64,000 bases of DNA. Origin: Cyanodermella asteris (lineage: Eukaryota > Ascomycota > Lecanoromycetes > Ostropales > Stictidaceae). The stretch covers positions 273,503 to 337,502 of the forward strand of contig UYJD01000005.1 in assembly GCA_900618795.1 (NCBI GenBank), written 5' to 3'. The translations under genes were made by a program, and so were the position numbers. Positions 58,863-59,074 of the stretch are shown here, in pieces (within the stretch, counting starts at the first letter, position 1; each line of letters starts with the position of its first letter). Under the pieces are notes generated by a model, which did no database searches, was not told the DNA's origin, and worked only from the letters and a program-made list of their open reading frames with translations.

Positions 58863-59074
58863 AAAAAAAAAGATCACAAAAAGTGAGAAGTATACTGACC
58901 GCATATGTAGAGCCTATTCACGCCCCGTCCCCGACAATACCTAGCAAACGCGTCCGCAGAAAGCACCGAGCCGATAATGTTGCCTAGATTCGGCACGTTG
59001 TTCACGTACGGAAGCGCGCTGGTGACGAGCATGTTGCGCTCCCCGGGCTTCGGGAGGACGACATTCCCTGCCAT
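57140..59074 (-). CDS. mes1: Methionyl-tRNA synthetase, cytosolic type, diverged and frameshifted copy
   Basis: Class I synthetase that charges tRNA-Met. Exon 1 (59074-58900) begins MAGNVVLPKPGERN; a 143-bp intron (58757-58899) contains a (CA)13 run; exon 2 is 58756-57140. The family order is clear: SALPYVNNVPNLGNIIGSVL, then GTDEYGTTTEARAIAEG, VYKWFNISFDFFGRT, zinc knuckle cysteines (ECPHCRYADARGDQCDLC), KFSKSRGIGVFG (KMSKS equivalent) and the anticodon-binding helices. Two anomalies are visible. The HIGH-type motif reads PNLGN where PHLGN is normal, and TRDL-WG reads TRVVRWG. At 58611-58622 a GGAC triplet repeat shifts the frame; with two repeat units the sequence would read GRTTTAQQTRITQDIF in phase and the total would be 595 codons. 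The rest of exon 2 is open. It may be a decaying duplicate, a diverged paralogue, or a partly mis-assembled gene. Confidence 0.88.
58611..58622. repeat. (GTCC)3 tetranucleotide causing the synthetase frameshift
   Basis: On the coding (minus) strand this is GGAC three times. Protein similarity before it is in one frame and after it in another. Loss of one unit would restore the family sequence, so the third unit is probably the extra one. Confidence 0.8.
58837..58871 (+). repeat. (CA)13 plus poly-A microsatellite in an intron
   Basis: Thirteen CA units followed by about ten A lie in the single intron of the methionyl-tRNA synthetase gene. On the transcribed strand this gives poly-T then GT repeats near the donor site. 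Confidence 0.97.

What the first reader, a model, noticed from the sequence alone, without database searches (positions are those of the whole stretch)
58900..59074. Methionyl-tRNA synthetase lacks the first His of its HIGH-type motif
Seen: exon 1 reads NNVPNLGNIIG, coded by CCG AAT CTA GGC AAC. Known: cytosolic MetRS has PHLGN here; the His of the HIGH signature stabilises the adenylate transition state in class I synthetases. A second invariant position is also changed (TRVVRWG instead of TRDL-WG), and others look altered (YPWFDACIGY for YVWFDATIGY). Yet exon 2 stays open for about 1.6 kb. Inferred: either a duplicate under relaxed selection, or a paralogue with a new non-charging role (for example a regulator or inhibitor-insensitive copy).
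Basis: partly seen in the sequence, partly recalled or inferred. Interest (0 to 1): 0.72.

Follow-up and report, generated by a model that had tools for sequence, protein, structure and literature searches.

The report
Decaying second fungal methionyl-tRNA synthetase
This fungus carries an old second copy of its methionine-loading enzyme that has lost several key catalytic residues and, in this assembly, its reading frame, while an intact copy elsewhere in the genome can do the job; it is probably a gene on its way out.

Summary
The H-to-N change is real: minus-strand exon 59074..58900 reads NNVPNLGNIIG; TRVVRWG and YPWFDACIGY are in exon 2. The genome has an intact cytosolic-type MetRS on contig 14 (PHLGN, TRDL, YVW, KFSKS), a bacterial-type one on contig 5, and this copy. 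Window and contig-14 copies are sisters (100/100) but about 56% identical, with different intron sites: an old duplicate. At 107 conserved columns the window copy alone lost 9, contig 14 alone 3; eight of the nine lie in the second half of the catalytic domain, the ninth is the HIGH His. Control: 4 of 77 reference enzymes depart from conserved columns as often, so the number alone is weak evidence; at fully invariant columns only 1 of 77 does. Reading: an old paralogue whose ATP and acceptor sites degraded while the rest stayed constrained, then recently lost its frame. Uniform neutral decay fits less well but is not excluded; a live non-charging protein would require the break to be an assembly error. 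No fungal relatives could be searched.

The parts
58900..59074 (-). Exon 1 of the second cytosolic-type MetRS: start ATG at 59074 with an in-frame stop seven codons upstream; encodes the HIGH region as PNLGN
   Evidence: 64 of 99 residues identical to the contig-14 copy for exon 1 plus the first part of exon 2
58757..58899 (-). Predicted intron of 143 bases (GTCAGT ... CTGAT ... CAG), phase 1, with a TG/CA run; not at the intron site of the contig-14 copy
   Evidence: splice signals and frame read; CA x13 at 58837-58862. No transcript evidence
58618..58756 (-). First part of exon 2, frame A (GTDEYG ... SFDFFG)
58611..58622 (-). Tandem GGAC x3 at which the homology changes frame (frame break)
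57140..58622 (-). Rest of exon 2, frame B: rest of the catalytic domain with CPHC/CDLC cysteines, TRV, YPW, KFSKS, anticodon domain, short Lys-rich end, stop
   Evidence: Pfam PF09334 (E 2.7e-96) and PF19303 (E 1.2e-16); 268 of 491 residues identical to the contig-14 copy

Best explanation
It is an old paralogue of the fungus's cytosolic methionyl-tRNA synthetase, redundant with the intact copy on contig 14. Shown: the His of the ATP-binding HIGH motif and residues of the second half of the catalytic domain (by E. coli numbering W204, D234, V252 and neighbours) are replaced, while the Zn cysteines, KFSKS and the anticodon domain are kept, and the assembled gene has one frame break. Inferred: charging activity became weak or was lost first, with the rest of the protein still under constraint; the frame was lost recently, perhaps by slippage in a four-base repeat; the locus is now a young pseudogene and the contig-14 enzyme does the cytosolic charging.
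For: An intact cytosolic-type MetRS is present elsewhere. It and window piece B are sisters at 100/100, window branch 0.78 against 0.40. 9 window-only against 3 contig-14-only losses at 107 columns; 8 of the 9 in window residues 206-310 (33 of the 107 columns), the ninth the HIGH His; scan permutation P 0.005-0.023. At columns invariant in all references the window copy departs at 6 of 56, contig 14 at 1 of 56, and 1 of 77 references departs at as many. One frame break and no in-frame stop in the two pieces. GC3 is 0.70 in both pieces, against 0.42 GC in the intron and 0.46-0.54 in three flanking stretches. Conservation on both sides of the break is high, which suggests a young break.
Against: Control: at columns at least 95% conserved, without screening on human, the window copy departs at 13 of 112, and 4 of 77 references depart at 13 or more (P. 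abyssi 13 of 104, L038 20 of 119, L084 21 of 122, L087 25 of 120), so the count alone does not show lost function; one of them, L038, also has 8 of its 20 departures in 206-310. W213F, P307V and changes at P253 occur in other references. With columns at least 90% conserved, clustering is weak (permutation P 0.05-0.19). The regional rate contrast is modest (Fisher P 0.038 and 0.025 with two outgroups, 0.12 with a third). Uniform neutral decay gives this few lesions in 1-4% of simulations for nine losses and 5-14% for six. The break could be an assembly error. Activity, expression and orthologues were not tested.
Confidence: 0.5

Rival explanations
1. The gene is alive and the frame break is an assembly or sequencing error: a pseudo-synthetase that still binds methionine and/or tRNA-Met (Zn knuckle and anticodon domain kept) but charges poorly or not at all, and acts as a sensor, decoy or partner.
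For: Only one lesion, at a short tandem repeat; GC3 0.70; overall distance to human equal to that of the contig-14 copy (247/518 against 252/522 identities); with human as outgroup the acceleration is confined to residues 206-310 (17 against 7 there, 34 against 40 elsewhere).
Against: The break is in the assembly. Open frames of 526-1142 aa at seven other PF09334-matching loci and of 2075, 1112 and 796 aa in the window give no sign of frequent indel errors. No partner or regulatory context found.
Confidence: 0.22
2. Simple redundant duplicate under relaxed selection, decaying without any preference for the catalytic site.
For: Excess of losses at conserved sites, frame break, longer branch; faster overall with 2 of 7 outgroups; clustering weak at columns at least 90% conserved.
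Against: No stop codon and one frameshift are fewer than expected (1-4% of simulations for nine losses); GC3 not decayed; 8 of 9 private losses in 33 of 107 conserved columns; 96 of 107 conserved columns kept despite a branch of 0.78, so most of its history was constrained.
Confidence: 0.19
3. Inhibitor-insensitive second MetRS that traded activity for resistance, as in the IleRS1/IleRS2 pair.
For: IleRS2 with an altered HXGH gains mupirocin resistance at small catalytic cost (PMC10485003, passages). In a type 2 MetRS, V252 and Y237 map to the pocket where diaryldiamines bind and where the tRNA acceptor end is predicted to bind (PMC8165550, passages); the V252 position and the SRD loop just before the Y237 position are changed here.
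Against: The motif change is not the G/AXHH swap; no biosynthetic-cluster family seen among the ORFs scanned around the window gene or the contig-14 gene; the frame is broken.
Confidence: 0.05

Closest known systems
Eukaryotic cytosolic (type 2) methionyl-tRNA synthetase, represented by the contig-14 gene and PDB 5gl7 (human; organism recalled)
   Same: Same domains (PF09334, PF19303), CPHC/CDLC cysteines, KFSKS; Met-pocket residues recalled from E. coli (A, L, Y, W, Y, H) kept; grouped with contig 14 at 100/100
   Different: H29N in HIGH, TRD to TRV, YVW to YPW and six other private losses; broken frame; different intron site
IleRS2 with altered HXGH motif (PMC10485003, passages seen)
   Same: Second synthetase of the same specificity with the first His of the signature motif replaced
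   Different: There the motif is G/AXHH, the enzyme is active and mupirocin-resistant, and it is bacterial; here only the first position is changed, to Asn, and the frame is broken
Bacterial MetRS paralogue of predicted peptide-synthesis pathways (PMC2922099, passages seen)
   Same: Paralogue of MetRS beside a normal MetRS
   Different: That group is tied to a cupin and a lysine N6-monooxygenase and is predicted to adenylate methionine; neither partner was seen among the ORFs scanned here, and this copy groups with contig 14
Aminoacyl-tRNA synthetase pseudogenes and pseudo-synthetases in general (recalled)
   Same: Redundant copy, lost catalytic residues, frame break
   Different: Losses tend to fall in one part of the catalytic domain with the rest of the protein conserved

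Membership tests
Cytosolic-type MetRS (by descent) | Homology over catalytic and anticodon domains, grouping with eukaryotic MetRS | tested here: met
   Pfam and NCBIfam hits; sister to contig 14 at 100/100, then human at 96/92, in a tree of 22 rows
Cytosolic-type MetRS (working enzyme) | Intact HIGH-type motif (H-L-G-N) | tested here: not met
   N in place of H; 75 of 75 reference rows with a residue have H, 2 of 77 have none
Cytosolic-type MetRS (working enzyme) | KMSKS-type motif | tested here: met
   GGKFSKSRGIGVFG; contig 14 has KGKFSKSRGIGVFG
Cytosolic-type MetRS (working enzyme) | T/S-R-D loop and YVW strand of the acceptor/methionine pocket | tested here: not met
   TRVV and YPW; D in 75 of 77 rows (one N, one X), V in 77 of 77
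Cytosolic-type MetRS (working enzyme) | One open reading frame after splicing | tested here: not met
   Frame break at 58611-58622; no splice pair that keeps the conserved FGRTT block was seen by eye in the GT/AG list
Cytosolic-type MetRS (working enzyme) | Charges tRNA-Met | not testable with these tools
   Needs protein or genetics
Pseudogene | Disrupted frame | tested here: met
   One break, no in-frame stops; assembly error not excluded
Pseudogene | Neutral decay of codon use and conserved sites | tested here: inconclusive
   GC3 0.70; 96 of 107 conserved columns kept; simulation P 0.01-0.14
Bacterial cupin-linked MetRS paralogue (PMC2922099) | Cupin and lysine N6-monooxygenase neighbours | tested here: not met
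   Pfam scan of 26 of the 40 window ORFs of 200 aa or more gave neither; spliced or short genes may be missed
Inhibitor-insensitive second synthetase | Tolerance to an inhibitor | not testable with these tools
   No assay; no biosynthetic-cluster family seen in the ORFs scanned

The most novel reading that the evidence does not exclude
A long-lived fungal pseudo-MetRS: the methionine pocket, Zn knuckle and anticodon-binding domain are kept, but the HIGH His contact to ATP and the tRNA acceptor pocket are rebuilt, so that the protein binds methionine or initiator tRNA without charging and serves as a sensor or decoy; the frame break is an assembly error or a strain-specific loss.
Probability: 0.18. 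Interest if true: 0.62.

Novelty: new member of a known kind. Interest (0 to 1): 0.3.

Why it matters
If the paralogue is or was a non-charging protein, it would be a natural test of which MetRS contacts can be lost while the rest of the enzyme stays under selection. If it is a young pseudogene, it shows an old synthetase duplicate being lost after its catalytic site had already degraded, which is of modest interest. Either way an annotation that fuses the two frames would record a false second cytosolic MetRS.

Tried and rejected
Recent duplication: rejected; 64/99 and 268/491 residues identical to contig 14, fourfold-degenerate sites saturated (103 of 143 differ, 0.72 expected at saturation), different intron sites. 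For the same reason dN/dS against contig 14 was not computed.

Intron or alternative splicing as the cause of the frame change: using the GT and AG sites near the break would remove the conserved FGRTT or GTDEYG block; judged by eye, not scored. Frame B has no ATG before the conserved block, so internal initiation there is unlikely.

Organelle enzyme: rejected for the window copy; the contig-5 copy is the one of bacterial type (PHVGH, best NCBIfam match a different MetRS model). Its targeting was not tested.

Bacterial origin: in a tree of 22 of the 80 aligned rows, piece B is nearer contig 14 and human than any of the 18 prokaryotic or viral-collection rows. Transfer from another fungus cannot be tested here.

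Literature: seven searches of the held library. In the titles and opening abstracts listed (3, 7, 9, 0, 1, 15 of 127, and 2 of 3 papers) I saw no report of a fungal second cytosolic MetRS with a changed HIGH motif; none of the 15 listed contains 'methionyl-tRNA synthetase'. Papers seen as passages only: PMC10485003, PMC6038951, PMC8165550, PMC2922099.

Rows dropped: of the 82 loci L009-L090, L010 was not used and L015, L044, L078, L086, L088 and L090 were dropped as too short or without a recognised motif, leaving 75, plus 5gl7 and 1rqg. At the HIGH column these two have no residue, because only their stretches after it were copied.

The same call showed that an earlier statement of mine, that most references lack the contig-14 insertion, was wrong; it is mended below.

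No structure prediction was run.

Full report
What is there. The window is C7:273503-337502 of a 28.5 Mb, 25-contig genome, to my judgement a filamentous ascomycete from its gene content (Pex19, Nup120, Iml2, an LRR-PP2C-cyclase protein). On the minus strand lies a MetRS gene: exon 1 59074..58900, a 143-base intron with GTCAGT and CAG ends and a CTGAT branch-like site, and exon 2 from 58756 to the stop at 57140. The intron is inferred from splice signals and homology only.

The observation. NNVPNLGNIIG, TRVVRWG and YPWFDACIGY are all present. But exon 2 is not one frame. From GTDEYG to SFDFFGRT homology runs in one frame; from GRTTTAQQ to the end it runs in another. The change falls in GGACGGACGGAC at 58611-58622, the only such match in the window. 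The second frame has no ATG before the conserved block. As assembled the gene cannot give a full protein by ordinary translation.

The genome. PF09334 matches 13 stretches. Three loci are MetRS: contig 14, contig 5 and the window; the other matches lie in open frames of 1022-1142 aa and are presumably other class I synthetases, which I did not identify. A search with window piece B finds the same three loci; the anticodon-domain family finds only contigs 14 and 7. The contig-14 gene has PHLGN, TRDL, YVWFDACIGY and KFSKSRG in an open frame of 615 codons after its own intron. The contig-5 gene is of bacterial type, presumably the organelle enzyme.

Age. The window copy is identical to contig 14 at 64 of 99 residues (piece A) and 268 of 491 (piece B). 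Window to human (5gl7) is 247 of 518 and contig 14 to human 252 of 522. In an ML tree of 22 of the 80 aligned rows, window piece B and contig 14 join at 100/100, and human joins them at 96/92; their branches are 0.78 and 0.40. Both copies have DN in place of PW in the anticodon domain. Their introns are at different places, about 14 codons apart. This is an old duplicate within the line leading to this fungus, or a transfer from another fungus, which cannot be tested here.

Which residues are lost. Against 77 reference MetRSs (75 loci from the prokaryotic and viral collections, 5gl7, 1rqg), 107 columns are at least 95% conserved with human agreeing or having no residue. The window copy alone differs at 9 (H29N, W213F, R242Q, D247V, L248V, P253A, V266P, W285R, P307V), contig 14 alone at 3, both at 2. 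With columns at least 90% conserved it is 16 against 6 of 143, at 80% 20 against 10 of 165. Eight of the nine lie in window residues 206-310, which hold 33 of the 107 columns (Fisher P 0.0003 for a bin chosen after seeing the data; scan permutation P 0.010, 0.005 and 0.023 for three widths). With columns at least 90% conserved the scan P is 0.05-0.19, so the clustering is suggestive, not firm.

Control on the count. Without screening on human, the window copy departs at 13 of 112 columns (9 in 206-310), contig 14 at 7 of 113 (1), human at 7 of 104 (1). Of 77 references, each held against the others, 4 depart at 13 or more (1rqg 13, L038 20, L084 21, L087 25) and 43 at none; L038 has 8 of its 20 in 206-310. 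At columns invariant in all other references the window copy departs at 6 of 56, contig 14 at 1 of 56, and only L038 of 77 references at as many (8 of 64); 63 of 77 depart at none. So the number of departures alone does not show lost function; the kind does more. H29, R242, L248, V266 and W285 are invariant in the references, while W213, D247, P253 and P307 vary in a few.

Rates. With human as outgroup, 17 window changes against 7 in 206-310, and 34 against 40 elsewhere (P 0.038); with L011 18/3 and 53/36 (P 0.025); with L014 17/9 and 38/46 (P 0.12). Over the whole protein the window copy is faster with 2 of 7 outgroups (L011, L013; chi-square 9.3 and 7.1) and not clearly so with human, 1rqg, L014, L035 or L037.

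What these residues do. By the 1p7p chain (E. coli, recalled) in the alignment, counted by hand, D247 and V266 of this copy match D234 and V252, and residue 213 matches W204; the HIGH His is H21 (recalled). E. coli itself differs at several of the other positions, so these four are the most telling. In M. tuberculosis MetRS the first His of the motif bonds N7 of the adenine (PMC6038951, passages). In the type 2 X. citri MetRS, V252 and Y237 are among residues predicted for the tRNA acceptor arm, and a mutant that the passages indicate is Y237L lost much activity (PMC8165550, passages). So adenylation and acceptor-end binding are the steps most likely harmed. Kept are the Met-pocket residues (recalled from E. 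coli: A12, L13, Y15, W253, Y260, H301), the Arg of TRD, the CPHC/CDLC cysteines, KFSKS and the anticodon domain. An altered HXGH is not always fatal: some IleRS2 carry G/AXHH and stay active (PMC10485003, passages).

Dead or alive. GC3 is 0.70 in both pieces and 0.66 in contig 14; five complete window genes read in frame have 0.55-0.70; the intron has 0.42 GC and three flanking stretches 0.46, 0.50 and 0.54. A simulation of neutral decay from the present sequence until nine conserved residues change gives no stop and at most one frameshift in 1.1-3.9% of runs, or 5.3-14.4% if only six are allotted to neutral time (1500 runs per setting; indel rates are assumptions). So most of the history was probably constrained, and the frame loss is young or an error. 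Long open frames at seven other PF09334-matching loci (526-1142 aa) and in the window speak mildly against frequent indel errors; a run of N elsewhere in the window shows that the sequence held is not complete.

Context. Pfam scans of 26 of 40 long window ORFs and of 10 of 37 ORFs listed for 39 kb around contig 14 found ordinary genes and no biosynthetic-cluster family, cupin or lysine monooxygenase. This gives no support to a self-resistance or peptide-ligase role.

Verdict. A redundant, old, probably poorly charging or non-charging MetRS paralogue that has most likely just become a pseudogene.

Noticed in passing
L001:1319-1505 (contig 14): The contig-14 MetRS has its intron at YSR|Y (phase 2); the window copy has one about 14 codons further on (phase 1) and none at the first site, so intron positions have turned over since the duplication.
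   Followed up: partly
L001, spliced protein residues 259-267: The contig-14 MetRS has nine residues before the KVFYVW region that the window copy and human lack; 49-50 of 77 references have residues at five of these columns and none at the other four.
   Followed up: partly
window 58837-58862: A perfect CA x13 microsatellite next to an A-run lies inside the predicted intron of the window gene.
   Followed up: no
L038, L084 and L087 (bacterial loci): Three bacterial MetRSs depart at 20 of 119, 21 of 122 and 25 of 120 otherwise conserved columns, far more than most references; L038 has eight of these in the same region as the window copy.
   Followed up: partly
window 9954-11321, 22247-25582, 28059-30446, 33577-39801: Ordinary fungal genes by Pfam: PPP5-type phosphatase, Nup120, Iml2/TPR39, and an LRR-PP2C-cyclase protein in one 2075-codon open frame.
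   Followed up: partly
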